NCBI RefSeq assembly: GCF_002210425.1
Contig: NZ_MWQK01000002.1
Span: forward strand, 248,001 to 312,000
Source of the DNA: Fibrobacter sp. UWB2
GTDB taxonomy: Bacteria; Fibrobacterota; Fibrobacteria; Fibrobacterales; Fibrobacteraceae
DNA: 64,000 bases
Direction of reading: 5' to 3'
Shown here: positions 3,001-26,163 of the stretch, piece by piece
Layout: each line of letters begins with the position of its first letter
Position numbering within the stretch: the stretch's first letter is position 1
Position numbers and translations under genes: made by a program
Notes under the pieces: model-generated
Database searches by the model: none
Told to the model about the DNA's origin: nothing
Seen by the model: the letters and a program-made list of their open reading frames with translations, nothing else

Positions 3001-6000
3001 GCGTTGTCGCAACGGATGGCTCGGATCCTACGCTTACAGACGAAGTTGATGTGACTATCCATGTTAGAGACGTGAACGACGCCCCGGTATTCGAATTGGT
3101 TGAATATCCGTTCGAAGTTGACGAAAACAAGCCTGCTGGTGAAGTCGTTGGCGCAGTCGTTGCTACCGATGAAGATACTTGGAGCAAGTTGACCTTTGAA
3201 ATTGCCGATTACAAGGCAAATTCTGGTGATAGCAAGAAGTTTACGATTGACGCTTCGGGCAAGATCACTACCACAGAAAAATTGAATTACGAAGACCAGG
3301 CAACTTATGAACTCTTGGTTACTGTAACGGATAACGGTTCGTCCAAGGGCTTTGAAGATCTTAGTGCTACAACCAAGGTTGTTATTACAGTTAATGATAA
3401 ACCGGATGATCCGATTATTATCGATGACAAGAAGAACTATGAGGTTGCTGAAAATACCGCAGAACACCCGATCAAGGATGCAACGATTGTATGCTACGAT
3501 GTTTCGGATGAAGATCAGGACCAGGAAAAGTCTCTTGCTGGTTATGTCGTCGATGTCGGTGGTACGGATGCCGATCGCCTGTTTGATGCCAAGGTTAAGA
3601 AGGATGGCTCGAAGTATAAGCTTTGCCTCTCTGTCAAGACTCCTTCGAAGTTTAATTACGAAGCTCTTCCTCATGAACACTCCATTAAGGTGGGCGTGAT
3701 TGACAGCGATGAACGTACTCACGAAATTGCTAAGACCATTAAGATTGTTGACGTGAACGAAATGCCGATTATTTCGGGTAGCCTTGCATATTCCTTCTAT
3801 GAAAATAAGGGTGAAGGCTATGTTATTGGCAAGTTCAATTCTGCAGATGTCGATACCGCTAAGGGCTTTACCGAAAACGTGTTCAGTGCTATTGGCGGTG
3901 ATACTGATTTGTTCACGATTACCGAAGATGGTAAGATTAAGGCTCTGCGTGACTTTGACTACGAAAAGGAAAAGGTCCGTACATTTGAATTGGAAATCGC
4001 TTTGTCTGATAGAAATAAGACGAAGTATCCGGAGCTCACCACCAAGACGACGATTACAATCACGTTGAAGGATGTTCCGGAAGTTCCGCAGATTACGAGT
4101 ACTGAATTTAGCGTCAGGGAAAATCCGCCGGCAGATACTCTTATCGGTATCATCGAAGCGACTGACCCGGATGGCGAAGGCGAACTCCTCTTCTCGCTTG
4201 CCGTAGAAAGCCCGTATGTGACCGTCAAGCCGAATGGCGAAATCCATGTCAAGGAAGGCGCTGTCATCGACTACGAAAAGATGCAGAAGTTCACGATTAC
4301 GGTAACGGTCAAGGATGCTGACGGTCTTGAATTTGATGGTGATATCGTCATCAACGTCATTGACGTGAACGAACCGCCGAAGATTGAACCGCAGGAATTC
4401 ACGTTCCCGGAAGATTCCAAGCCGGGTACCAAGAAGGGACCTGTCGAAGCTAAGGATCCGGATACAAAGAACAAGAAGTTCAACGACTTGAAGTACTATC
4501 CGGTCACGGAAAATGATAAGTTCGAAATCAAGACGAATGGCGACATTGTCTTGAAGGGCGAACTCGACTACGAAAAGGAAAAGTCCTACGTCATCAAGGT
4601 CTATGTGACGGATGGCGAATTTACCGATACGACGGATATCACTGTCAAGGTGGGTAACGTCATCGAAAAGTCCCAGGTCGAGATTACTCGTGTCGAAGCT
4701 GGCGATTCTGTGTACATCAAGCCGAACAAGGAAATCTACACGAACCAGGAAGTCATCGAGGTGGAATGGACTCAGGATGGCAAGACCATGACGAGTCTCG
4801 ATACCTTGAAAGAAGGCTGCCAGAAGATTATCAAGTCTTACAAGGATCCGAGCAAGGATGTTGCCGGTGCCGATACTATCGATGTGTGCTACAGCACTGC
4901 CGCTCCGAAGGTCGATGTCGATGCCACAAAGACGAAGGTTACTGCAGACAACATCTATACGATTGTTGAAGGCGTAGATAAGAAGGACTCTTCCATTTAC
5001 GTGAACGACAAGACTAAGGATGTGAAGGTTACGGTGGAAGATACTGTTTCTCACTACAAGGAATCTTTCAACGTGACGGTTGTCCTGGATACAATCTCCG
5101 TGGCTGACAAGACCGTGAAGGAAATGGTTGAAATCTCCAAGTCCGAAATCACTCTTGAAAAGAATCCGAAGTCCGATGTCAAGACCAGTCCGATTGGCAA
5201 CAAGACGAAGGTCTCTTATGACAAGGTCGTAAACGGTGATTCTGTTGTCGTGTCTTACTATGTCGATGACAAGGGTGAAATCATCAAGTCCGCTGTTGTT
5301 GACGAAAATGGTGAAAAGAGCAATATCGCCGTGATCGAAGTCTCCAAGACTGTCGATGTCAAGGGCAAGAAGGTGGTTGTATCTTACAAGGCTGATGCCG
5401 AAACGGGCAAAATCCTTTACGGTGACTCCGAAGGCAACTTGATGTACGATACTCCGAAGTCTTCTAGCAGCAAGGAATCTAAGGACGAAAAGGAAAAGTC
5501 CAGTGTTGTTGACTTGAAGACGGGCGTGGGCGCCTTCACGGTGACCTACGATGCCAAGGGTGTCGAAGGCAACAAGTCTACGGTCTCCTACGTCATTGAC
5601 GAAAAGGGCAAGATTGTTGCTAACGAAGAAGGCGACAGGGGTTACCTCGTAACGTACACCTACACCAACAAATATGGCAACTCTGCCGACAAGTCGGTGT
5701 TCATGGTGCTCGACAGGATCAAGCCGATTGTCAAGATTCTGACTCCGGCTGATGGCGATGTGGTCTTTGCAAACTATGTCGATGTGGACTGGTGCGTCGC
5801 TATCGACGGTGATGAAAAGAACTGCGTCAAGCAGGATTCCTTGAACTTCCAGAGCCTCAATAAGGGCCCGAACACGATCAAGCGTATCTATCGTGACAAG
5901 GCTGGTAACGAAACCATTGCTGAAATCAACGTGATGATGAAGAAGGCGAAGGATGTCAATATCAATCTTGAAGAACCGATGATTATCGTTTCGATTGACT

Positions 6001-15846: not shown

Positions 15847-18800
15847 ATGAACAATAAATTTTTCAAACGTAATCTAATTGTATCGCTGCTTCTTGTTGCG
15901 TTTTTGTTTATTGTAACAAACGTTTCTTTTTTGTATATCAACAGGCAGGCGATTGACGATAGCTGGGACTCCCTTGATGAAGTCGCCTATGCTTCCGAAG
16001 CGAAGATGGGCTTTTTAGGCCGTTCGCTTTTGAGCGCTCTTTCCAATATTTCGACCGTGGTGGGGATGGAAGAAAACCTCCTCTCCGAAAATATGGTGCG
16101 TATGATTCGCGGCACCCGCATCGGTCCCTTGGTGTCGGTGGTTCGCCTTTATTTGCCCGATGGTCACATTATTGCAGACCATGCCGTTGTTTTTGACTCT
16201 TCGTATATTCAGCATTATCAGAAAATCGTTTCTCCCAAGCCGTATATTTCGAAAGTCGGTCGCGATTTGGTCCACTCCGAAAATATTGTGTTCGAACAGC
16301 TAGTCCCTGTCCGCCGTAGGGGGCAGGTGGTGGCCATGCTTTCGGCTGTTTCTGAGATTAAGCCTTTGTATGGCTATGTGGCGACGAACGCCTTCAAGGG
16401 CAAGGCATCTTTGATTGTGGTGGACCGTAGAGACGGTTCCTTTGTTGTCGAAAAAACTGGAAAATGGAAAAACTTTAACGAGTTTGTAAGGAATATTCAG
16501 ACAAAGAAAGGGTATTCTGTAGACGAGTGGGCGGCAACCGTGATGAAGGGAGAATCCGCCCATATAGCCTATGAGGAGGCTTCTTCGGACGAAGCTAAGC
16601 TTTTGGTGGCTTTGCCATTGTTTGGTGGTTGCTGGACCCAGCTTTTGTATGTGAACGAGAATATCGCCTTTGCGCGTGTGGATAAAATCCGCAAGTTCTA
16701 TATCGGGATTTCGGCAATTGAACTTCTCGTGATTCTCTTGTATTTGCTCCGCATGGTGTGGAATGCCCGCCGCATGGCCGAAGCTGAAAGTAATGAGTAT
16801 TCCGAAATTGCCGATGCCTTGAGCGGTACTTATGAATGCATTTTCTATGTGAACGTTTTGGATGACACTTTTGACACGTTCCATTCCGACAGGCTTATGA
16901 ACAAGCTTCACGAAGAGGTGCATGGGAAGGACTTCTTCTTTGAATCTATATCGAGTTTGCGCCATAACCTGTATGAAGACGACCTTGAAATTGTGATGCA
17001 CTTTATGGAAAAGGGGTCCTTCTTAAAGCGTCTAGAAGAGAATCCGAGTGCGTCTGTGGAATACAGGCTTGTCATTGATGGAACTCCGCAGTTCTATCGA
17101 ATGAAGGCAATCAAGTCTAGCAAAGATGAAAACCATGTCATTGTTGCTGTGGAAAATATTGATTCCGAAGTCAACAAAGCTATTGCCCAGCGCCAAGAAA
17201 TGGACCGCAACAACAGGGTTATTGAATCCCTGGCTTCAGACTTTGACTTTGTGAACTACGTAACGCTTGGCGAAGATGCTTCTTCGGACTTTGTTGTGAC
17301 GTACCGCGCCAGTTCTGTGCTTTTGAAGGCAATCCCTGGATGGTCTTCTGAAAAGAGTTTCTCTAAGAGAATGGATCTGTTGCTCAAGTATCTTGTCTGT
17401 GATTCTGACAAAAATCAGTTCCAGGTGCAGACGAGCCGCGATCGCCTTGTCTCGACGTTGAAGAACGAATCGGTGATTCATGTCAACTTCAAGATCAAGC
17501 TTGAAGGCAAGGAAGTTTGTTACCAGATGAAGATTATTGCCGACAAGGATGAAATTGGCAATCTCAAGGGTATCGTTTTTGGTCTGCACAGTGTCGATGA
17601 AGAAATCAAGAAGCAGATGGAAATCCAGTCGAACCTGAAGCAGAACCTTGAAATTATCGACATTCTTTCGGAAGACTATTCGTCACTCTTCTACTTCAAT
17701 CTTGTCGATGACACAAGCGGAGTCCTTGCTGTTCGTGAAGATATTAGGGCTGCTTTTAAGGATCCTTTTGCCAACTGCGAAAGGCTGGAAGATGTCTTTA
17801 AGACGTTTGTCCTGAATATGGCGCACCCGGATGACCGTGAAAAGCTTATCGGGCTTGCTTCTAGAGAGTATGTGGCCGGACAGCTTATGCACCAGAAGCG
17901 CTTGACCATTGTATTTAGACACCTCTACGGTACTGAATACAAGTACACGCGTCTCGTGTTTGCCAAGGCTGAACCTGTCGATGTCCCGCCGAAGCTTATC
18001 GCTGTTGGCTTTGTCGAAGTGGATGCCCAGTACCGTGCAGAAACGGAACACCAGGAAAATATTGAACGCATTATGAGCCTTTCGGACCAGTACGAAGTCG
18101 TGTTCGATGTCAATATCGATACGGGCTTGTTTAGCGTTTCGTTGACAGGCGGAAAGTTCAAAGATGTCGTTAATGAAGAGACTGGAGAAGGCGTTGACTT
18201 CTTTAAGGACAGGGAAAAGGATGTCCGCAAGATTGTCTATAAGGACGATGTTGATTCCGTGCTCTCTTCGCTTAATCGCGATACCGTAATTGCTCGCTTG
18301 CAACACGATAACTCCTTCTTCCAGGATTATCGACGTGTGACTAGCGAAGGGCTCAAGTGGTACCGCATGAAGGTGACCAAGATGGGCGACTGGTCCAAGT
18401 CTCGTCGAGTGCTTGTCGGCCTGTTCAATAACGATGTCGTTTACCGCAAGGAAATGGCGCAACAGGCGGCCCTTGAACAGGCGCTTGAAATGGCGAAGTC
18501 GGCGTCACGTGCAAAGACGATGTTCCTCAACAACATGAGCCATGATATCCGTACTCCGATGAATGCGATTATCGGCTATACGGAACTTGCGACAATCCAT
18601 ATTGGCAACAAGGAACAGGTGCGGAACTTCCTTGGAAAGATTGAGCTTTCTTCGAACCACCTGCTTTCGCTTATCAATGACGTGCTTGACATGAGCCGTA
18701 TTGAATCGGGCAAGCTGAACTTGAATGAAAAGCTGGAACATCTTCCGGAAATAATCCATACGCTCAAGGATATTGTCCAGGCGGATATCAATGCGAAGAA

Positions 18801-20043
18801 CTTGCAGTTCTTTGCCAATAGCGTCGGTATTCGTAACGAAGATGTTGTCTGTGATAGGCTCCGTTTGAACCAGGTGCTTTTGAACGTGATTTCAAACGCT
18901 ATCAAGTACACGCCGGCGGGTGGCTCCATCTGGTTCTCTGTGGAACAGAAGGAATCGGACGAAGATGGCTATGGCGTTTACGAGTTCCGCATCAAGGACT
19001 CGGGCATTGGCATGAGCGAAGATTTCTTGCCGAAGATTTATGATGCGTTTACCCGTGTGAATTCCTCGACGGTCTCTGGCATCCAGGGAACGGGTCTTGG
19101 CATGGCGATTACAAAGAACATTGTCGACATGATGGATGGCACGATCGACATCAAGAGCAAGGTGGACGAAGGAACTGATGTTGTTCTGAATTTCAAGTTT
19201 GCTCTTGCCGGCGCTGAACATGAACTTGAACGCGTCAAGGAACTGGAAGGCAAAAGGATTCTCGTTGTCGATGACGATGTGGATTGTGCTAAGAGCATTC
19301 CGCAGATCTTTAAGGAACTCGGTGTTGAAGCTGAATGTTGCTATTCTGGCGCAGACGCCTTGGAACGTGTGAAGGCGGCGAAGGCCGAAGGTCACTTGTA
19401 CGACGCCTTCCTTGTGGACTGGCGCATGCCGAACATGGATGGCATGAAAACGACGTCGATGCTTCGCGAGTTGCTCGGGAACGATATCCTTGTGATTGTG
19501 ATGTCTGCCTATGAATGGTCGGATATCGAGGACAAGGCGACCGAAGTCGGAATCCATAACTTTGTAAGTAAACCTGTGTTCCCGTCGGATGCCCGTGATA
19601 CGCTGATGCGCAGCTTTGGGCTTTTACAGGCGGAAACTCCGGTATCGGATAAGAAGATCAGCTTTAATGGCAAAAAGGTTTTGCTTGTCGATGATAACGA
19701 ACTGAACCGCGAAATCGCCCAGGAAATTCTGGAGGACTGCGGAATACTCGTGACGACGGCTTGCGATGGCGAAAAGGCTGTGGAATACATGAAGAATGTA
19801 CAGCCGGGCGCCTGCGACTTGATTTTGATGGACGTCCAGATGCCTATCATGGATGGTTACGAGGCGACGAGGCTTATTCGTAAGCTCGACAACAAGGTGG
19901 CTGCCGAAATCCCGATTATCGCGATGACGGCAAATGCCTTTGCTGATGACCAGCAGGCGGCACTTGATGCCGGCATGAACGAGCATGTGGCAAAACCAGT
20001 GAACGTCAACAAGCTGAAAGAAGTGCTTTCGAGGTTCCTTTGA
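15847..20043 (+). CDS. Hybrid sensor histidine kinase with tandem PAS-like modules and two receiver domains
   Basis: 1398 residues. Transmembrane helices at about 10-32 and 284-305 bracket an extracytoplasmic sensor. Four PAS-like modules of about 130 residues follow (about 320-870), each opening with a segment like ECIFYVNVLDDTFD and closing with a strand such as NHVIVAVENID. The kinase core has HisKA with NMSHDIRTPMNAIIGY (His899 by position), then HATPase N, G1 and G2 boxes (NQVLLNVISNAIKYTP, IKDSGIGMS, GTGLGMAITKN). Two receiver domains follow, with probable phospho-acceptors Asp1191 (VDWRMP) and Asp1329 (LMDVQMP). There is no output domain, so signal passes to an unlinked partner. Its modules resemble those of the diguanylate cyclase at 48.3 kb. 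The gene precedes the RiPP-type operon, but nothing shows that it controls it. Confidence 0.9.
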   Translation: MNNKFFKRNLIVSLLLVAFLFIVTNVSFLYINRQAIDDSWDSLDEVAYASEAKMGFLGRSLLSALSNISTVVGMEENLLSENMVRMIRGTRIGPLVSVVRLYLPDGHIIADHAVVFDSSYIQHYQKIVSPKPYISKVGRDLVHSENIVFEQLVPVRRRGQVVAMLSAVSEIKPLYGYVATNAFKGKASLIVVDRRDGSFVVEKTGKWKNFNEFVRNIQTKKGYSVDEWAATVMKGESAHIAYEEASSDEAKLLVALPLFGGCWTQLLYVNENIAFARVDKIRKFYIGISAIELLVILLYLLRMVWNARRMAEAESNEYSEIADALSGTYECIFYVNVLDDTFDTFHSDRLMNKLHEEVHGKDFFFESISSLRHNLYEDDLEIVMHFMEKGSFLKRLEENPSASVEYRLVIDGTPQFYRMKAIKSSKDENHVIVAVENIDSEVNKAIAQRQEMDRNNRVIESLASDFDFVNYVTLGEDASSDFVVTYRASSVLLKAIPGWSSEKSFSKRMDLLLKYLVCDSDKNQFQVQTSRDRLVSTLKNESVIHVNFKIKLEGKEVCYQMKIIADKDEIGNLKGIVFGLHSVDEEIKKQMEIQSNLKQNLEIIDILSEDYSSLFYFNLVDDTSGVLAVREDIRAAFKDPFANCERLEDVFKTFVLNMAHPDDREKLIGLASREYVAGQLMHQKRLTIVFRHLYGTEYKYTRLVFAKAEPVDVPPKLIAVGFVEVDAQYRAETEHQENIERIMSLSDQYEVVFDVNIDTGLFSVSLTGGKFKDVVNEETGEGVDFFKDREKDVRKIVYKDDVDSVLSSLNRDTVIARLQHDNSFFQDYRRVTSEGLKWYRMKVTKMGDWSKSRRVLVGLFNNDVVYRKEMAQQAALEQALEMAKSASRAKTMFLNNMSHDIRTPMNAIIGYTELATIHIGNKEQVRNFLGKIELSSNHLLSLINDVLDMSRIESGKLNLNEKLEHLPEIIHTLKDIVQADINAKNLQFFANSVGIRNEDVVCDRLRLNQVLLNVISNAIKYTPAGGSIWFSVEQKESDEDGYGVYEFRIKDSGIGMSEDFLPKIYDAFTRVNSSTVSGIQGTGLGMAITKNIVDMMDGTIDIKSKVDEGTDVVLNFKFALAGAEHELERVKELEGKRILVVDDDVDCAKSIPQIFKELGVEAECCYSGADALERVKAAKAEGHLYDAFLVDWRMPNMDGMKTTSMLRELLGNDILVIVMSAYEWSDIEDKATEVGIHNFVSKPVFPSDARDTLMRSFGLLQAETPVSDKKISFNGKKVLLVDDNELNREIAQEILEDCGILVTTACDGEKAVEYMKNVQPGACDLILMDVQMPIMDGYEATRLIRKLDNKVAAEIPIIAMTANAFADDQQAALDAGMNEHVAKPVNVNKLKEVLSRFL

Positions 20044-20323
20044 TAGACGAAAGAACGCGTCTCCGGCGCTACAGACGAAAGACTAGAGGGTAATAAAGTG
20101 GATGATGTTTTTTTTTACAATTTTATAAAACATTAATTATCTGGTGGCTATCTGCTCCCTTCAAAAAAAAATAAAAACATTAGATTTTTTTTATTTTTTT
20201 TATTATTTTTTATTATTTTGCTTAAGGAAATGGAAAATGCAGAGTCGCCATAAAGGATGAATGCAAAGAGAAAGTCGATTCGCTTGATAGGATGTAGGCG
20301 CTAACTAAAAAAAGGATGCTGTT
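20044..20323 (+). other. AT-rich intergenic region between the kinase gene and the peptide gene
   Basis: 280 bases. The first 50 carry purine-rich GACGAAAGA-type repeats. Bases about 20105-20220 are extremely A/T-rich with long T and A runs and could hold an UP-element-like promoter or act as a nucleoid-protein site. I see no consensus promoter and no convincing gene. A 15-codon frame at 20257-20304 has no properly spaced ribosome binding site. Confidence 0.6.
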
Positions 20324-20410
20324 ATGAAGATGATAAGTCTAAAGAAGCTTCAGAAAGGTACAAAGGCCGCTGCAATGAGCGTTCGTTATACTAGTGTGTG
20401 CACCAAGTAA
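20324..20410 (+). CDS. Putative RiPP precursor peptide (28 residues)
   Basis: A 28-codon gene in good context: AAGGA eight bases before ATG. The peptide begins MKMISLKKLQKGTK, a basic leader-like start of the kind seen in radical-SAM peptide precursors. It continues AAAM and ends SVRYTSVCTK, with one Tyr, one Cys and several Ser/Thr in the last ten residues as plausible modification sites. No GG or other double-glycine cleavage motif is present. It is separated by 69 bases and a hairpin from a radical SAM/SPASM maturase gene and is the only plausible substrate gene in the operon. Assignment as precursor rests on position, size and composition, not on recognised homology. It is too short for default gene callers. 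Confidence 0.65.
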   Translation: MKMISLKKLQKGTKAAAMSVRYTSVCTK

Positions 20411-20426
20411 ACGTGCAAATTTTCAT

Positions 20427-20465
20427 ATAGTGGTTAAAGTCTATACTTTGGGCCTTAACCACTAT
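20427..20465 (+). terminator. Hairpin between peptide gene and maturase gene (attenuator or processing site)
   Basis: An 11-bp perfect inverted repeat (ATAGTGGTTAA/TTAACCACTAT) with a 17-base loop. No T run follows, so it is more likely a partial terminator, mRNA-stabilising or processing stem. Any of these would raise peptide mRNA over enzyme mRNA. Confidence 0.55.
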
Positions 20466-20479
20466 CATTATGGTTAGTT

Positions 20480-21778
20480 ATGAAATTTTCAAGGTACAAT
20501 ATAGAGATTGATATTGATGGAAATCGCATGCTGATGAATACGGTTTCCTTGGATTTGTTACCAATAGATTCAGATTTTCCGCTATGTCAGAATGGAATTG
20601 ATAGTGCAAAATTATCTTCAGAACAAATTTCTATGCTTCAAGAGGGCGGTTTTATTGTCGATGATGCTCTTGATGAACTGCAGGTTATAGAGGATAAATT
20701 TGACGCGGAAAAAACAGAATCGTTGATGTCCGTAAAACTGCTCTTATCAACGGAATGTAATTCAAATTGCCAATATTGTTATCAGCATTTTGCCAATTAT
20801 GAAAACTCAACAATAAGTGATGCGCAAATTCGCACATTTGTTTTGTGGGTAAATAATTACGTTGTGGAAAATAATATTCAAAAATTTTCTCTGGAACTTT
20901 TTGGTGGGGAGCCTTTACTTGCATCAAAACACTTACCCTTGTTATTTGATTTGTTGAATGAATTGAAAAGCAATAGGCGTTTCAGTGAATTCTCCGTTTC
21001 TATAATAACCAATACTTCTTTGTTTACGGATCAAATCCTTTCGTTGTTGGTAAAAAATGATGTTGAGTTTAAGTTTTCCATTGACGGCCCTAAGATTGTG
21101 CATGATAGCAGAAGACCTTTAAAGAATGGTACTAGTTCTTATGATAAAACTATAGAAGCAATTAAAAAAATTAAAGAGATGGGACGGATTGATCTTGTCA
21201 CGGCAAGATTTAATCTGGATAAAAGAAATATAGAATATTTGGAAAATGTTGCCCAAACTTTGCATGAATTGGGCGTAGAGCGCCTTTATTGCGGTAGAGT
21301 GTTTTTTCGAGGAAAAAAAACTCCTTACTCAGCGAATATTATAAATGAAAAAAGTTATTATCAAAATGGCACGTGTTTAAAATTATTCCATGTTCTTTCA
21401 AAATATGGGTATTCTGATACGCCTTGCGTTATAGAACCCTCTAGAGTTTGCCAGTTTTATCGTCTGCATAGTTACGTTGTGTCTCCAAAACTGGAGGTTG
21501 CTAAATGTGACGAACTTCTTGATATAAAGGAGCTGCAAGTGGGATATATAGATTCTAGTGGTTTTTTGAAAAAAGTTGGGAAAAACTATCAGCTTCAGAC
21601 CGGAAGGACTCCGTCAAAAGATATTGAATGTAAAAATTGTGCATACCTTCCAATATGTGGAATGGGCTGTCCAATAGAGGCTATGAATTTGACGGGAAAC
21701 CCTTTGAATCATGTTTGTATGAATAAAGAATTACTTCAGGAAAAAATAAAAGTTCTATTGATGGCTAATAATGAATAA
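20480..21778 (+). CDS. Radical SAM/SPASM peptide maturase (first of two)
   Basis: 432 residues. Residues 1-80 are a small alpha-beta N-terminal region of the sort that binds leader peptides in RiPP enzymes (assumed, not recognised). The radical SAM core starts at about 84 with CNSNCQYC (Cys93, Cys97, Cys100) and has GGEP at 141-144. The C-terminal SPASM region shows the usual spaced cysteines (CQFYRLHSYV, VAKC, CKNC, ICGMGCP, HVC), enough for two auxiliary 4Fe-4S clusters. Such enzymes make C-C, C-O or thioether crosslinks in precursor peptides. The ribosome binding site is weak. The gene follows the 28-residue peptide gene and overlaps the next gene by 8 bases. The Fibrobacter/Ruminococcus 'FibroRumin' maturase family is known to me by name and may be related; I cannot verify this here. 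Confidence 0.9.
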   Translation: MKFSRYNIEIDIDGNRMLMNTVSLDLLPIDSDFPLCQNGIDSAKLSSEQISMLQEGGFIVDDALDELQVIEDKFDAEKTESLMSVKLLLSTECNSNCQYCYQHFANYENSTISDAQIRTFVLWVNNYVVENNIQKFSLELFGGEPLLASKHLPLLFDLLNELKSNRRFSEFSVSIITNTSLFTDQILSLLVKNDVEFKFSIDGPKIVHDSRRPLKNGTSSYDKTIEAIKKIKEMGRIDLVTARFNLDKRNIEYLENVAQTLHELGVERLYCGRVFFRGKKTPYSANIINEKSYYQNGTCLKLFHVLSKYGYSDTPCVIEPSRVCQFYRLHSYVVSPKLEVAKCDELLDIKELQVGYIDSSGFLKKVGKNYQLQTGRTPSKDIECKNCAYLPICGMGCPIEAMNLTGNPLNHVCMNKELLQEKIKVLLMANNE

Positions 21779-22643
21779 AAAAAAATTTGAAGTCCCATAT
21801 AATTTTGACGAAGAGCTTATTCCGTTCTATAAGGAATATTCTAATTATGTAAATTTTCTGTTTCTTCCGCCCTACAAAGATGATCTTATCAATACTCGAA
21901 CGATTATCCAGTCGGCTGACAAGGGGGACTGCTATATGCCGCAATGTCGTTACGAGTATGAATCTCATTTAAAAGAAATCAAAGATGCTGGTTTGCGATT
22001 TGTTGTTCTTTGGCAAGTGAAAGACAACGTTATCTCGAAATCTATGCTTGATTATTATGTTAATCTTGGTGCGGCTGGCTTTATTGTTGCCAATGATGAC
22101 AATGCGAAAATAATAAAAAAATATGATGATGGTTTACTCGTTATATGTAGTATAGTGCAAAGATTATGTGCTGGAATGCTGGCAAAAGATTTTTCCAACT
22201 ATGACTACGTGGTTATGTATTATCCCTTTAATCGCTCATTAAATGCGATTAAACTTCTGAAAGAAATTAAAGAAAAAATTGTGATTATGCCTAATACGGT
22301 ATGCCACACGGATTGCCCAGCAATTCATCATTGGTTTCCATCAAAAGATCGTCCATTTAATCAAGATAGAGATTGTATGGCAATCAAGAATATTGATCGG
22401 TGTTGTTTTATTTATCCTGAGCACTTATCTCTTTTCGATGATTTTGTTGGTGGGTATAAATTGCAGGGTAGAGAATATCCTACTAGCATAATTAAAGATG
22501 TTTGTAGGGCTTTCTTTACTCGGAAGACTCCTCCGTCCCTTTTAGAAGCGAACATAGAAGAAAAACTCCAGGAGAATTTGTGTAAAATGACTCTTGAAGA
22601 ATATTACAATGTTAAAACATCTGATGTTGTTGCCTGCTTATGA
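21771..22643 (+). CDS. Peptidase-U32-like Fe-S TIM-barrel protein
   Basis: 290 residues. The alternating strand-helix pattern (FVVLWQVKD, AAGFIVANDD, YDYVVMYYP, KIVIMPNTVC) suggests a TIM barrel. PNTVCHTDCP (Cys178, Cys182) followed by His, Cys202, Cys211/212 and then GYKLQGRE (228-235) parallels the U32 family, where four cysteines bind a 4Fe-4S cluster and a K-x-x-GR motif follows. Known U32 members include collagenase-like proteins and the oxygen-independent hydroxylation factors UbiU/UbiV, RlhA and TrhP. An extra Cys54/Cys59 pair near the N-terminus is unusual. The gene overlaps both neighbours (8 and 4 bases), so it is part of the peptide-modification operon. Hydroxylation of the peptide is a hypothesis; proteolysis or a scaffold role are alternatives. 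Confidence 0.65.
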   Translation: MNKKKFEVPYNFDEELIPFYKEYSNYVNFLFLPPYKDDLINTRTIIQSADKGDCYMPQCRYEYESHLKEIKDAGLRFVVLWQVKDNVISKSMLDYYVNLGAAGFIVANDDNAKIIKKYDDGLLVICSIVQRLCAGMLAKDFSNYDYVVMYYPFNRSLNAIKLLKEIKEKIVIMPNTVCHTDCPAIHHWFPSKDRPFNQDRDCMAIKNIDRCCFIYPEHLSLFDDFVGGYKLQGREYPTSIIKDVCRAFFTRKTPPSLLEANIEEKLQENLCKMTLEEYYNVKTSDVVACL

Positions 22644-23458
22644 TTAATATACTTGTTGTTGGTGAAGAATCCTGGAAAATCCCTGAGCGTGCTGATGTCG
22701 CAATTTATTGCAGGAAGAATCCGGCAGATGTCGATTTGTACAGCGATTCGTCGCGAACGTTGTACATGTTGAATGAAAGTGATAAATGGATTGTTGTAGA
22801 TTATGTAATATGGCGCTGCCAGTTTTGTGAAAATTATTCCATAGAACATAAAATTTTAGATCTTATTAATTTTACAAAAACAAAGTGCATAAATAGTGCT
22901 AGAACAAACATTATGTTTGGACATAATATTTCGATGTTTAATGCAATGAACGAGTGTAATATGCCTGTCATTCCACGTAGGTTTATGATTGGAAGACGAA
23001 GTACTGTATTTGTTCATCCAGAGAATGATGTGGAGGTGTTTAAGATTGGAGATTATCATAGTGGATATGCAAAATCCATAATTCGAAATAAAGAAACGTA
23101 TCAAGATACCATAGATATGGCGTGTTTGTTTGATGATATACAATCTTTAGAGCCGTTTGTGAATTATGTGCAGGATGTTAGGATTTTGAAAATAGGGGCT
23201 TCATTTGGCGCTTACGAAAGAATTCCCTCAATGTGGAAAGCAAATGTGTGTCCGCATTTTTTGAAGGAACTTTTAATTAATGATATTCCGGCAGAAATCA
23301 TTGAGCATACAAATGCTTTGTCTGAATATATTAAAGCGGATGTTGTTGGCGTGGACTGGATAAAAGATGAGGATGGCCATTGGTATGCGCTTGAAGCGAA
23401 TCTTGCACCAGGCATGGAAAAAGAAGATAATTATAAAAAAATCGTGTCGTTACTATGA
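22640..23458 (+). CDS. ATP-grasp ligase of the RiPP-type operon
   Basis: 272 residues with the shape of RimK/MvdD-like ATP-grasp enzymes. An N-terminal alpha-beta domain is followed by the ATP-grasp fold with a probable ATP-binding Lys135 (VFKIGDYHSG), Arg181 (DVRILKIG) and a metal-binding end VVGVDW...ALEANLAPG (Asp239, Glu252, Asn254). ATP-grasp enzymes in RiPP pathways activate side-chain or C-terminal carboxylates to form ester, amide or added-amino-acid bonds. In this 28-residue peptide the C-terminal carboxylate is the obvious acceptor, because the last half has no Asp or Glu. It overlaps both neighbouring genes by 4 bases. Several cysteines (Cys60, Cys63, Cys83) lie in the N-terminal part without a known role. 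Confidence 0.85.
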   Translation: MINILVVGEESWKIPERADVAIYCRKNPADVDLYSDSSRTLYMLNESDKWIVVDYVIWRCQFCENYSIEHKILDLINFTKTKCINSARTNIMFGHNISMFNAMNECNMPVIPRRFMIGRRSTVFVHPENDVEVFKIGDYHSGYAKSIIRNKETYQDTIDMACLFDDIQSLEPFVNYVQDVRILKIGASFGAYERIPSMWKANVCPHFLKELLINDIPAEIIEHTNALSEYIKADVVGVDWIKDEDGHWYALEANLAPGMEKEDNYKKIVSLL

Positions 23459-24324
23459 ATTTGTATACGAAATCAATTAAAGAATTAAAAAAGACGAATA
23501 AAGTGCGTTTTTTTTTGCGGTTTGATCCTCTTGTTATTCCAAATGAATATGATGATAATTATATAGCTAATCAAATAGATGCCTGTAACTATTTTTTTTG
23601 TTGGTTTAGCAATCCGAATTGCTCTTTTATGGATATGCTGAGACAACAACATCGGCTTGCTGCTTTGGGAAAAACAGGGAATAACACGTATCTTATAAAA
23701 GGTTATTTTCGTACGCGAGAGGGGGGCTGCGATAACTGGGACTTGCGAGACAATCTAGCAGGCATGACCCGTTATGAACTTAGGAAAAAAGGTATTGACC
23801 ATGCTCATTTAGATTTGCTTCGTATTCGGCCTAATGAATATGATATTTATCGGGACGAAGATTATTTTAAAAAGATATACCAACCAACAACAGGGAAGAT
23901 TGGGGTGGATAGAGCAACAGTGTGTACGGCTAGCATTGCTGTTGACGATCGAAGGGTCTATAGTCATTCATTTATGTTTCGAAAAAATCGTTATTTCTAT
24001 ATAAAACATCCAGAAGGATCCGATTTTGAGTATTTGCAAGCTGAATTGGAGAAAAAAATGTCTATGTTATTAAGCCTAAAAAATGCTGGTAAAATAGATT
24101 TAGACAAGTTATTGTTCCATCTATCCTCCTATTATCAGTTGTTTTTAGTATGGATGCCTTTTGCCCATATCAATAATTCTATTGTGTGGGGCCAAATGAA
24201 TGCTATATTGCAGTATTTTGGATATGGGGCCTGTTCTCATGGTCGTTTAGATACCTATGCAATGTTGCTGTCTTCAAAGAATTTTCGGCACTTGTTTGAA
24301 CTCCATGTTAAGGATAATAATTAA
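23455..24324 (+). CDS. Unknown protein with degenerate Fic-like signature
   Basis: 289 residues, no recognised family. Residues 1-200 are mixed and rich in aromatic and basic residues, with Cys44, Cys49, Cys56, Cys92 and Cys157. Residues about 218-258 look like the core of a Fic (Fido) domain: a helix ending SSYYQLFLV, then MPFAHINNS (234-242), then a helix with Asn249 ending FGYG. This parallels HPFxDGNGR...N..L..GY of Fic AMP-transferases, but the catalytic His is Met234, Asp/Glu is His238 and the first Arg is Ser242. Any Fic-type chemistry must therefore be altered or lost. SHGRLDTYAM (261-270) follows. It is embedded in the operon (4-base overlap upstream, 2-base gap downstream), so it probably recognises or modifies the peptide. 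The Fic link is inferred by eye. Confidence 0.5.
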   Translation: MNLYTKSIKELKKTNKVRFFLRFDPLVIPNEYDDNYIANQIDACNYFFCWFSNPNCSFMDMLRQQHRLAALGKTGNNTYLIKGYFRTREGGCDNWDLRDNLAGMTRYELRKKGIDHAHLDLLRIRPNEYDIYRDEDYFKKIYQPTTGKIGVDRATVCTASIAVDDRRVYSHSFMFRKNRYFYIKHPEGSDFEYLQAELEKKMSMLLSLKNAGKIDLDKLLFHLSSYYQLFLVWMPFAHINNSIVWGQMNAILQYFGYGACSHGRLDTYAMLLSSKNFRHLFELHVKDNN

Positions 24325-24326
24325 AT

Positions 24327-25550
24327 ATGAATCTTATTATAATAGATTCCTGTACAAATTCATGTCCATATTGTTTTGCGGAAAAAGAAATGTCAAAACA
24401 TAGGGCAAATACAATGTCTATAGAAACTTTTGAGAAGGTTTTGCGCAAAATTCGAGCAACACCATATCCTGTTTCTGTAAATGTTCTTGGAGGAGAACCC
24501 TTGCTTCATCCTCAATTAGGGAAGATGATTGAACAATTAGAAGTGGAAAATAATGTTTCCGATTACACGATACTTTCTGGTGGAGTTGTGAAACAAAATT
24601 CATTTGATTTTTTTTCGCCAAATTCAAGGAAAATAAGTTTTCTTTTCAATGTCAATCAGAAAAAAGATTACAGGACGGAGCAATCGTATAATCTTGTGCA
24701 TGATAATATTGGTCGATTGATTGATAGGGGGTTCAAAGTCTCTTTGGGATTTAATATTTATCAGATGGATTTTAATGCGCAGGAAATTATTGAGTATTGT
24801 ACAACTTATGGAGTGTCTGCTCTTAGGCTTGCAGTTGCGAAACCGACGTATGGCATGGAAAATCCGAATCTTTTAATGCCGAAACAATATAGAGAACTTT
24901 CGCCAAAGGTGGCGGATCTGATAGAAATGGCATCTGCGTGTAATGTGAAGGTGAATGTAGATTGCATGCTGCCAAAGTGTTTTTTCAATGATGCCGATTT
25001 GTCAAGAGTAATCAAAGCACAACCTGGGGTGCTAGACGGAGTGTTCGGCAAATGTGGAATTGCCTTAGATGTTACACCTCAAGAAGATGTATTTCGTTGT
25101 TTTGCGACCGAGGAAATGCAAAAAAAGAAACTTGATGATTTTGAAAACTTCGAAGAAATGACGGATTTTTTTACGGATTTGTTTGATAATAGTTCAAAAC
25201 GCCCTGATATTTTCTCGAAATGCAAAGACTGTAAATATGCGGAAAATCAAACATGTAAAGGAGATTGCTATGCGAATTGGAAGGATCTTGATGTTAAAGA
25301 ATCTTTTTCGTCAATGATTGAAAATATCTATAACTGGATTGAAAAAAAAGATTTTGAAAAGGCGTATTCCCATTTAAAAGAAATAAAGCAAAATGTTCCT
25401 GCTGTGTCTCTTTTGTGGGCGTATTATTGGCTATCTTGTGGTGATAAAGTAAGGGCTCGTAGCTACGCAAGAAATGTAATAATCTTAACAAATGATAATG
25501 AGTTGATTGATAATGCAAAGAGCATCCTTGATTTCGTTTCTTCTAACTAA
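24327..25550 (+). CDS. Second radical SAM enzyme of the RiPP-type operon, with C-terminal helical repeats
   Basis: 407 residues. The radical SAM motif lies almost at the N-terminus, CTNSCPYC (Cys9, Cys13, Cys16), without the leader-binding extension of the first maturase. GGEP is at 55-58. Auxiliary cluster cysteines occur at KCGIALDV, FRCFAT, CKDCKY and CKGDC, consistent with a SPASM or shortened twitch domain. The last about 100 residues are helical, with a TPR-like pattern (KKDFEKAYSHLKEIKQ, GDKVRARSYARNVI), useful for protein docking. It starts 2 bases after the previous gene and ends the operon. Two radical SAM enzymes imply at least two radical steps on the substrate, or one acting on a different target. 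Confidence 0.88.
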   Translation: MNLIIIDSCTNSCPYCFAEKEMSKHRANTMSIETFEKVLRKIRATPYPVSVNVLGGEPLLHPQLGKMIEQLEVENNVSDYTILSGGVVKQNSFDFFSPNSRKISFLFNVNQKKDYRTEQSYNLVHDNIGRLIDRGFKVSLGFNIYQMDFNAQEIIEYCTTYGVSALRLAVAKPTYGMENPNLLMPKQYRELSPKVADLIEMASACNVKVNVDCMLPKCFFNDADLSRVIKAQPGVLDGVFGKCGIALDVTPQEDVFRCFATEEMQKKKLDDFENFEEMTDFFTDLFDNSSKRPDIFSKCKDCKYAENQTCKGDCYANWKDLDVKESFSSMIENIYNWIEKKDFEKAYSHLKEIKQNVPAVSLLWAYYWLSCGDKVRARSYARNVIILTNDNELIDNAKSILDFVSSN

Positions 25551-25890
25551 AAATGAAGACAAAGAGAGACTGTTAACTATAATGCAGGAGAAGTTTTGTG
25601 ACGCAGTTTATTTTACAATCTCGAAAATAATGGCTCTTTGTGCTTGTTTTAGCCCAAAATTCTTTCGTTTAATATTATATTAGCTCATTATAGGCGTGTG
25701 TAACATGGCTCGGTCTTGTCAATTCACGCAAGCGTGGTTGCCGCGACTCTCGCCTTTAGTTATATTTACCCGCAAATTGCATTTTTGCCTGGGTCCTGTG
25801 ACCAGATTCGCCAATTCCACTGGTGCTAGAGCAGTAAACTCGGACAAAAACATGTAATGAAACAAACAATCAAAAAAAGGAATGGCTACA
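25551..25890 (+). promoter_or_regulatory. Intergenic region with structured leader of rpsO
   Basis: 340 bases without a supported gene. From about 25700 the GC content rises abruptly relative to the operon upstream. Short hairpins are visible (CACGC/GCGTG near 25728; GGTC/GACC near 25793), consistent with a structured 5' leader. S15 is known to repress its own mRNA through structured leaders in several phyla. A/T-rich TAATATTATATTAG just before 25685 could hold a -10 box; no clear -35 is seen. No terminator for the upstream operon is evident. Confidence 0.4.
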
Positions 25891-26163
25891 ATGGCTACTA
25901 TCACTAAAGAAAAGGCTGCAGAACTCACCGCTAAGTTTGGTGCTAACGAAAAGGACACCGGTAACGTCCGCGTTCAGATCGCTATCCTCACGGAAAAGAT
26001 CAAGAACCTCACCGAACACATCAAGACCAACAAGAAGGACTTCCACTCTCTCCGCGGTCTGTCCATGATGGTTGCAAAGCGCAAGAACCTTCTCAAGTAC
26101 TACGGCGAAAAGGACATTATCGCTCAGCGTGCATTGATCAAGGATCTCGGTCTCCGCGGCTAA
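25891..26163 (+). CDS. rpsO: 30S ribosomal protein S15
   Basis: 90 residues, the normal size for S15, with typical core segments TGNVRVQIAILTEKI, HSLRGLSMMVAKRKNLLKYY and the ending LIKDLGLRG. S15 binds the central domain of 16S rRNA early in 30S assembly. I chose the second of two in-frame ATGs because the only Shine-Dalgarno sequence (AAGGA) sits about nine bases before it but abuts the first; the first would add MAT. pnp follows after 20 bases, the common rpsO-pnp arrangement. Confidence 0.97.
   Translation: MATITKEKAAELTAKFGANEKDTGNVRVQIAILTEKIKNLTEHIKTNKKDFHSLRGLSMMVAKRKNLLKYYGEKDIIAQRALIKDLGLRG

What the first reader, a model, noticed from the sequence alone, without database searches (positions are those of the whole stretch)
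20324..25550. Undescribed RiPP-type operon: short peptide, two radical SAM enzymes, U32-like Fe-S protein, ATP-grasp ligase and a Fic-like unknown
A 28-residue peptide gene is followed by five genes that overlap or abut by 2-8 bases. Seen directly: two CxxxCxxC radical SAM proteins with auxiliary-cluster cysteines, an ATP-grasp metal motif ending EANLAPG, and a U32-type Cys pattern with KLQGRE. Known: radical SAM/SPASM and ATP-grasp enzymes are typical RiPP tailoring enzymes. The combination with a U32-like protein and a degenerate Fic-like protein is not one I recognise, apart from a possible link to the 'FibroRumin' maturase family known to me only by name. Inferred: a multiply modified peptide made under anaerobic conditions.
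Basis: partly seen in the sequence, partly recalled or inferred. Interest (0 to 1): 0.92.

Follow-up and report, generated by a model that had tools for sequence, protein, structure and literature searches.

The report
Rare peptide-modifying operon with Fic-fold enzyme
A horizontally acquired gene cassette encodes a tiny peptide and five enzymes that probably decorate it, and the same six genes in the same order occur in a gut bacterium of another phylum; the enzyme combination (two radical SAM enzymes, a synapsin-like ATP-grasp ligase, a Fic-fold protein and an unclassified conserved-cysteine protein) matches no pathway I could find.

Summary
A 28-codon gene (20324-20410) is followed by five tightly packed genes up to 25550. 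Key new evidence is a second copy: a horse-faeces Paludibacteraceae MAG (L001) carries all five enzymes in the same order (42-66% identity) and, just upstream, a 29-codon ORF aligning without gaps to 27 residues of the window peptide (KMIxLxKxQ...MSxRYTxxCTK-stop; 0 of 20,000 shuffles score as high). Genes C and E occur in 1 of 168 genomes of the window's phylum. Two siblings show about 200 bp where the window has 5.7 kb, and the insert is 35% GC against 48-50% in its flanks, so it was acquired as a unit. Radical SAM assignments hold. The ATP-grasp protein is synapsin-like. The unknown is probably Fic/Fido-fold (AvrB, AnkX and FICD lead the structural matches) without the Fic motif. The U32 label is not supported: Pfam, profile comparison and cysteine spacing all fail. 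FibroRumin is rejected (67 bits, cut-off 400). The peptide has no Asp/Glu (the relative has none in its core), so the ligase cannot be a standard graspetide cyclase; if it acts on the peptide, it should act on the C-terminal carboxylate. Best reading: a new rSAM RiPP variant, product unknown.

The parts
20324..20410 (+). Gene A: 28-aa putative precursor peptide MKMISLKKLQKGTKAAAMSVRYTSVCTK
   Evidence: Homologous 29-codon ORF at L001 4771-4860, ungapped over 27 residues, synonymous codon differences, 0 of 20,000 shuffles as high; the DNA pattern of its C-terminus occurs once in 168 genomes of the phylum
20427..20465 (+). Stem-loop between the peptide gene and the first enzyme gene, possibly setting the expression ratio
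   Evidence: z-score -3.3, no shuffle folds as well; L001 has stem-loops in the same interval (z -5.0), one terminator-like at 4902-4932
20480..21778 (+). Gene B: radical SAM/SPASM peptide maturase, 432 aa, nearest to CefB/Clo7bot/CteB-type enzymes
   Evidence: NCBIfam NF038107 184 bits (cut-off 600), PF04055 over cut-off, CteB 5wgg E 8.8e-17; 51% identical to L001
21771..22643 (+). Gene C: conserved 290-aa protein with an invariant CX3CX19CX8C set, possible Fe-S or other metal protein on a barrel-like fold; U32 assignment unproven
   Evidence: 66% identical to L001, the best conserved of the five; no Pfam/NCBIfam family; model pLDDT 48 resembles TIM barrels
22640..23458 (+). Gene D: synapsin-like ATP-grasp ligase, 272 aa
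   Evidence: PF02750 Synapsin_C 49.6 bits, cut-off 22.5; L001 homologue 58.1 bits and RimK 22.0 against 21; PDB synapsins E 3e-17
23455..24324 (+). Gene E: Fic/Fido-fold protein without the Fic catalytic motif, 289 aa
   Evidence: Foldseek's first 35 PDB hits are all Fic/AvrB; VIA-align Z 10.2 AvrB, 9.9 AnkX, about 9 FICD; 49% identical to L001
24327..25550 (+). Gene F: second radical SAM protein, 407 aa, with SPASM-like conserved cysteines and a C-terminal extension
   Evidence: PF04055 39.5 bits, cut-off 29.5; TIGR04340 38.7 bits, cut-off 400; 45% identical to L001 with invariant C243, C258, C299, C302, C310, C314
20044..25700 (.). Extent of the acquired cassette (approximate boundaries) between a hybrid histidine kinase gene and rpsO
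   Evidence: Siblings G130 and G063 have about 200 bp here; GC 34.9% against 47.6-50.0% in the flanks, GC3 0.29-0.32 against 0.58-0.65

Best explanation
A complete, horizontally transferred RiPP cassette. Gene A encodes a precursor with an N-terminal recognition segment (KMIxLxKxQ) and a C-terminal core (MSxRYTxxCTK). B, and probably F, install radical SAM crosslinks or other C-H modifications on the core, with the single strictly conserved Cys and the conserved Tyr/Thr as likely sites. E, a Fido-fold protein, would transfer a group from a diphosphate-nucleotide donor (nucleotidyl or sugar) to a core Thr, Tyr or Ser. D, an ATP-grasp ligase, would activate the peptide's C-terminal carboxylate and form an amide or ester there. 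C would be a metal (perhaps Fe-S) tailoring or partner protein. Shown: gene order, co-conservation with the peptide, the radical SAM and ATP-grasp families, the Fic-like fold prediction and horizontal acquisition. Inferred: that the peptide is the substrate, and every individual reaction.
For: All five genes in the same order plus a homologous peptide in another phylum. The peptide gene has the same position and orientation, and its C-terminus through the stop codon is conserved. Stable RNA hairpins lie between peptide and enzyme genes in both loci. B resembles known RiPP radical SAM/SPASM maturases. D is an ATP-grasp protein with the synapsin-type lysine and EAN region conserved. E has a Fido-type fold, and the known Fido activities modify proteins using diphosphate-nucleotide donors (PMC10866546). 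Window peptide: no Asp/Glu at all; L001: one Asp, in the leader. The unit moved as a block: empty sites and GC contrast.
Against: Only two instances are known, so covariation of core and enzymes cannot be tested. No protease, transporter or immunity gene belongs to the conserved unit. No RRE family was matched in the first 85 residues of B (Pfam only). Models of C and E come from two-sequence alignments (pLDDT 48 and 65). E's HMM and motif scores against Fic are no better than background. No expression or product data.
Confidence: 0.78

Rival explanations
1. The five enzymes make a small molecule or modify another cell component (cofactor, RNA, protein), and the 28-aa ORF is a regulatory leader or an accessory small protein, not the substrate.
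For: No exporter, peptidase or immunity gene in the conserved unit. Hairpins downstream of the ORF would also suit attenuation. U32-type and ATP-grasp proteins elsewhere act on RNA and metabolites.
Against: The peptide's amino-acid sequence, not only its position, is conserved across phyla, strongest at N- and C-termini as in leader/core precursors. B's nearest curated families are nearly all peptide maturases.
Confidence: 0.14
2. Gene C is a divergent U32 oxidase that hydroxylates the peptide without oxygen, as UbiU/UbiV, RlhA and TrhP do on other substrates, and E then decorates the new hydroxyl. (A sub-hypothesis of the best explanation, not an alternative to it.)
For: Four conserved Cys followed by K-L-x-G-R, like the K-x-E-G-R that follows the U32 cysteines. 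The best PSSM window in C falls on KLQGRE in most settings. U32 Mk0906 (5d88) is among the barrel matches, Z 9.9, 4.8 A over 191 residues, 14% identity.
Against: No PF01136 hit; hhalign against seven U32 proteins probability 0.3%; HMM score reached by 17 and 57 of 2,000 shuffles, with the best alignments outside the cysteine region; spacing CX3CX19CX8C differs from CX6CX15CX3/4C and from UbiU's CX6CX16CX38C. Many unrelated barrels score as high.
Confidence: 0.15
3. Gene D is a graspetide-type cyclase forming side-chain lactones or lactams.
For: ATP-grasp fold; the L001 homologue just passes the RimK cut-off; graspetide loci often include SPASM radical SAM enzymes (PMC8939145).
Against: The window peptide has no Asp or Glu and L001 has none in its core, so no side-chain carboxylate exists to activate. 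The best family is Synapsin_C, a word that does not occur in that graspetide survey.
Confidence: 0.04

Closest known systems
Radical SAM/SPASM RiPP systems with CefB (NF038107), Clo7bot and CteB (SCIFF) maturases
   Same: B is similar over nearly its full length, with radical SAM and SPASM-type cysteines; a short Cys-containing peptide lies directly upstream
   Different: B is far below every family cut-off (184 against 600 bits for CefB); the core has one conserved Cys, not a repeat; four extra enzymes, and no transporter or protease
FibroRumin system (TIGR04136)
   Same: Radical SAM peptide maturase superfamily
   Different: 67 bits against a cut-off of 400; no relationship beyond the superfamily
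Graspetides (ATP-grasp RiPPs, PMC8939145)
   Same: ATP-grasp ligase next to a short peptide and a SPASM enzyme
   Different: Synapsin-like ligase; peptide lacks Asp/Glu in the core, so side-chain lactones or lactams are impossible without prior modification
Fido superfamily (Fic/Doc/AvrB; AvrB glycosyltransferase, PMC10866546)
   Same: Predicted helical Fido-type fold; like AvrB it lacks the HPFx[D/E]GN[G/K]R motif
   Different: No sequence-level match; encoded in a peptide-maturation operon; donor and acceptor unknown
U32 proteins (UbiU/UbiV, RlhA, TrhP; PMC6747719)
   Same: Barrel-like model, four conserved cysteines, KLxGR string
   Different: Different cysteine spacing, no Pfam or profile match; shorter protein
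Synapsins
   Same: D's only strong family (PF02750) and only strong PDB hits
   Different: A bacterial stand-alone ligase in a peptide operon; synapsins are neuronal proteins

Membership tests
RiPP biosynthetic cluster | Short precursor gene co-conserved with adjacent modifying enzymes | tested here: met
   Two loci in different phyla
RiPP biosynthetic cluster | Precursor modified by the encoded enzymes | not testable with these tools
   Needs coexpression and mass spectrometry
RiPP biosynthetic cluster | Precursor-recognition (RRE/PqqD-like) domain | tested here: inconclusive
   Pfam finds nothing in B residues 1-85; structure of that region not predicted
Radical SAM/SPASM peptide maturase | CxxxCxxC core plus C-terminal auxiliary-cluster cysteines | tested here: met
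   PF04055 over cut-off for B and F; conserved Cys in both homologues
FibroRumin (TIGR04136) | Score over the curated cut-off of 400 bits | tested here: not met
   67.2 bits
CefB family (NF038107) | Score over the curated cut-off of 600 bits | tested here: not met
   183.7 bits
Peptidase U32 (PF01136) | Pfam model match | tested here: not met
   No hit up to E 1 for either homologue
Peptidase U32 (PF01136) | CX6CX15CX3/4C (or UbiU CX6CX16CX38C) cysteine motif | tested here: not met
   Observed CX3CX19CX8C (reference spacing)
Peptidase U32 (PF01136) | TIM-barrel fold | tested here: inconclusive
   Model pLDDT 48; many barrels match equally
Fido/Fic superfamily | Fido fold | tested here: met
   First 35 Foldseek hits all Fic/AvrB, though E-values are 0.02 or worse; VIA-align Z 10.2 to AvrB over 201 residues, 3.9 A; model pLDDT 65
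Fido/Fic superfamily | HPFx[D/E]GN[G/K]R catalytic motif | tested here: not met
   E reads MPFAHINNS at the matching helix-loop-helix; motif score within background. AvrB also lacks it (PMC2686095)
Synapsin-type ATP-grasp (PF02750) | Score over the curated cut-off of 22.5 bits | tested here: met
   49.6 and 58.1 bits
Graspetide | Core Asp/Glu acceptors for side-chain ester or amide rings | tested here: not met
   No Asp/Glu in either core
Known anti-phage defence system | Match to PADLOC models beyond the superfamily level | tested here: not met
   Only generic radical SAM similarity to viperins

The most novel reading that the evidence does not exclude
The founding example of a RiPP class in which a Fido-fold enzyme attaches a sugar or nucleotide to the core peptide, a synapsin-type ATP-grasp ligase caps or cyclises its C-terminus, and two radical SAM enzymes crosslink it, with C a new metalloenzyme family. 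It would give Fido and synapsin-type folds their first role in peptide natural-product biosynthesis, as far as I know.
Probability: 0.35. Interest if true: 0.85.

Novelty: new variant of a known kind. Interest (0 to 1): 0.62.

Why it matters
If the peptide is the substrate, one small cassette offers a compact, self-contained set of anaerobic tailoring enzymes with two folds (Fido, synapsin-type ATP-grasp) that I could not find described in RiPP pathways. The 28-residue substrate with a single strictly conserved Cys and no acidic residue makes each predicted reaction easy to test by mass spectrometry. It would also suggest a chemistry for synapsin-like ligases, whose reaction I recall as unknown (own knowledge).

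Tried and rejected
FibroRumin membership: rejected by score. U32 membership of C: Pfam, hhalign with seven U32 proteins, HMM scores against shuffles and PSSM scans gave no support. Sequence-level Fic membership of E: no support; only the fold comparison supports it. Graspetide chemistry: excluded by the lack of Asp/Glu. Defence system: PADLOC gives only generic viperin-like radical SAM similarity. Further copies: none among 168 genomes of the phylum (genes C and E and the core pattern), 395 Bacteroidia (gene C and the pattern), 200 of the relative's family (gene C) and 393 of its order (gene D). The one genome-contig scan with gene E gave only L001; it finds close relatives only. Plasmid searches with C, D and E and viral-contig scans with C, D, E and F gave none; B and F hit only distant radical SAM proteins, at about 21-27% identity. 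Pattern hits L046 and L047 lie inside other reading frames and L043 has an internal stop, so these are chance; L045 ends in TGG, not a stop. The first shuffle test used a wrong start for the L001 peptide and was redone. Multinuclear iron (DUF692) barrels were considered for C but not tested.
Full report
Observation. The window holds, on the + strand, a 28-codon ORF (A, 20324-20410) and five ORFs B-F (20480-25550) that overlap by 8, 4 and 4 bases or lie 2 bases apart. The upstream neighbour is a hybrid histidine kinase (15847-20043); downstream lies a gene that reads as ribosomal protein S15, rpsO (25882-26163).

A second instance. A scan of one genome for each of 84,980 species with gene E returned one relative, L001, a Paludibacteraceae MAG from horse faeces. 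It carries B-F in the same order and similarly tight packing. Identities are B 51%, C 66%, D 42%, E 49%, F 45%. About 165 bp upstream of its B is a 29-codon ORF, MKKMINLSKIQNVKDTVLMSCRYTRRCTK. It aligns without a gap to 27 residues of the window peptide MKMISLKKLQKGTKAAAMSVRYTSVCTK, score 65; the best of 20,000 shuffles scores 48, and the best unrelated small ORF in the fetched loci scores 40. Conserved residues cluster at both ends (KMI.L.K.Q and MS.RYT..CTK-stop), and several conserved residues use different codons, so the peptide is very probably translated and selected. Nothing further is conserved on either side, so A-F looks like the complete unit.

Rarity and transfer. Gene E and gene C each occur in 1 of 168 genomes of the window's phylum. 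Gene C occurs only in the L001 genome among 395 genomes of its class and 200 of its family, and gene D only there among 393 of its order. In two siblings (G130, G063) the kinase gene and the rpsO leader are about 200 bp apart where the window has 5.7 kb. The cassette has 34.9% GC (GC3 0.29-0.32) against 47.6-50.0% (GC3 0.58-0.65) around it, and the L001 copy has 34.4%. It was acquired horizontally as a unit. A sub-threshold PD-(D/E)XK transposase-family match lies next to the L001 copy.

The parts. B is a radical SAM/SPASM protein whose best curated family is CefB (184 bits, cut-off 600) and best solved relative is CteB. Full-length plasmid relatives in Sarcina and Paraclostridium (24-27% identity) include one annotated as a Clo7bot maturase and two beside transporter genes. 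F is a second radical SAM protein with SPASM-like conserved cysteines; distant relatives sit beside other radical SAM genes or YcaO/TfuA genes. D is an ATP-grasp protein whose clear match is the synapsin ATP-binding domain (49.6 and 58.1 bits, cut-off 22.5; PDB synapsins E 3e-17). E has no sequence family, but its AlphaFold model (pLDDT 65, two-row alignment) retrieves Fic/AvrB structures as the first 35 Foldseek hits, E-values 0.02 or worse; VIA-align gives Z 10.2 (AvrB, 3.9 A over 201 residues), 9.9 (AnkX) and about 9 (FICD). The segment MPFAHINNSIVWGQMNAIL sits at a loop-helix junction as the Fic motif does, but the catalytic residues are replaced and motif scores are not above background. 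AvrB, a Fido protein without the motif, transfers rhamnose to a threonine (PMC2686095, PMC10866546).

Gene C. The U32 label does not survive testing. No PF01136 hit, hhalign probability 0.3%, HMM score reached by 17 and 57 of 2,000 shuffles, and conserved cysteines spaced CX3CX19CX8C instead of CX6CX15CX3/4C. The low-confidence model is barrel-like and matches many barrels about equally, a U32 protein among them. C is the best conserved of the five, with invariant Cys/His/Asp (C178, H179, D181, C182, H186, H187, C202, C211), so it is probably a metal protein (inference); whether it is a remote U32 relative is open.

Mechanism. The simplest account is a RiPP pathway: A is recognised by its N-terminal segment and modified in MSxRYTxxCTK by B and F; E transfers a group from a diphosphate-nucleotide donor to a hydroxyl; D acts as a ligase; C adds or supports a metal-dependent step. 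One deduction is firm from sequence: the window peptide has no Asp or Glu and L001 has none in the core, so a graspetide-type side-chain ring is impossible without prior modification; the only carboxylate is at the C-terminal lysine, whose CTK-stop is strictly conserved. D most likely works there, if it works on the peptide at all. Stable stem-loops between A and B in both loci would suit higher expression of the peptide than of the enzymes. No step has been shown biochemically.

Literature. Searches of the open-access library for RiPP clusters with U32, Fic, synapsin-like ATP-grasp, CefB or FibroRumin components found no described pathway with this set. Subscription papers and most preprints were not searchable.

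Verdict. A real, rare, horizontally acquired cassette that is best read as a new variant of radical SAM RiPP clusters, with an unusual enzyme set.

Noticed in passing
window 25707-25773: A dispersed intergenic repeat (about 60 bp, 77-92% identical) at several places in this and sibling genomes; in L013 it occupies the native rpsO upstream position, so it is not a cassette end.
   Followed up: partly
window 20100-20230: Very A/T-rich, low-complexity stretch between the kinase gene and the peptide gene, near the left end of the insert.
   Followed up: no
L001 3960-4475: ORF with a sub-threshold match to PDDEXK_2 (transposase-type nuclease family) just upstream of the relative's cassette.
   Followed up: no
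L048 4333-11382 (Chlorohelix plasmid): Three radical SAM genes interspersed with hypothetical genes, a possible RiPP-like cluster; one is a distant relative of gene F.
   Followed up: no
L049 4576-10653 (Thiodictyon plasmid): PqqD-type chaperone protein, radical SAM, amidohydrolase, YcaO and TfuA genes in a row; the radical SAM is a distant relative of gene F.
   Followed up: no
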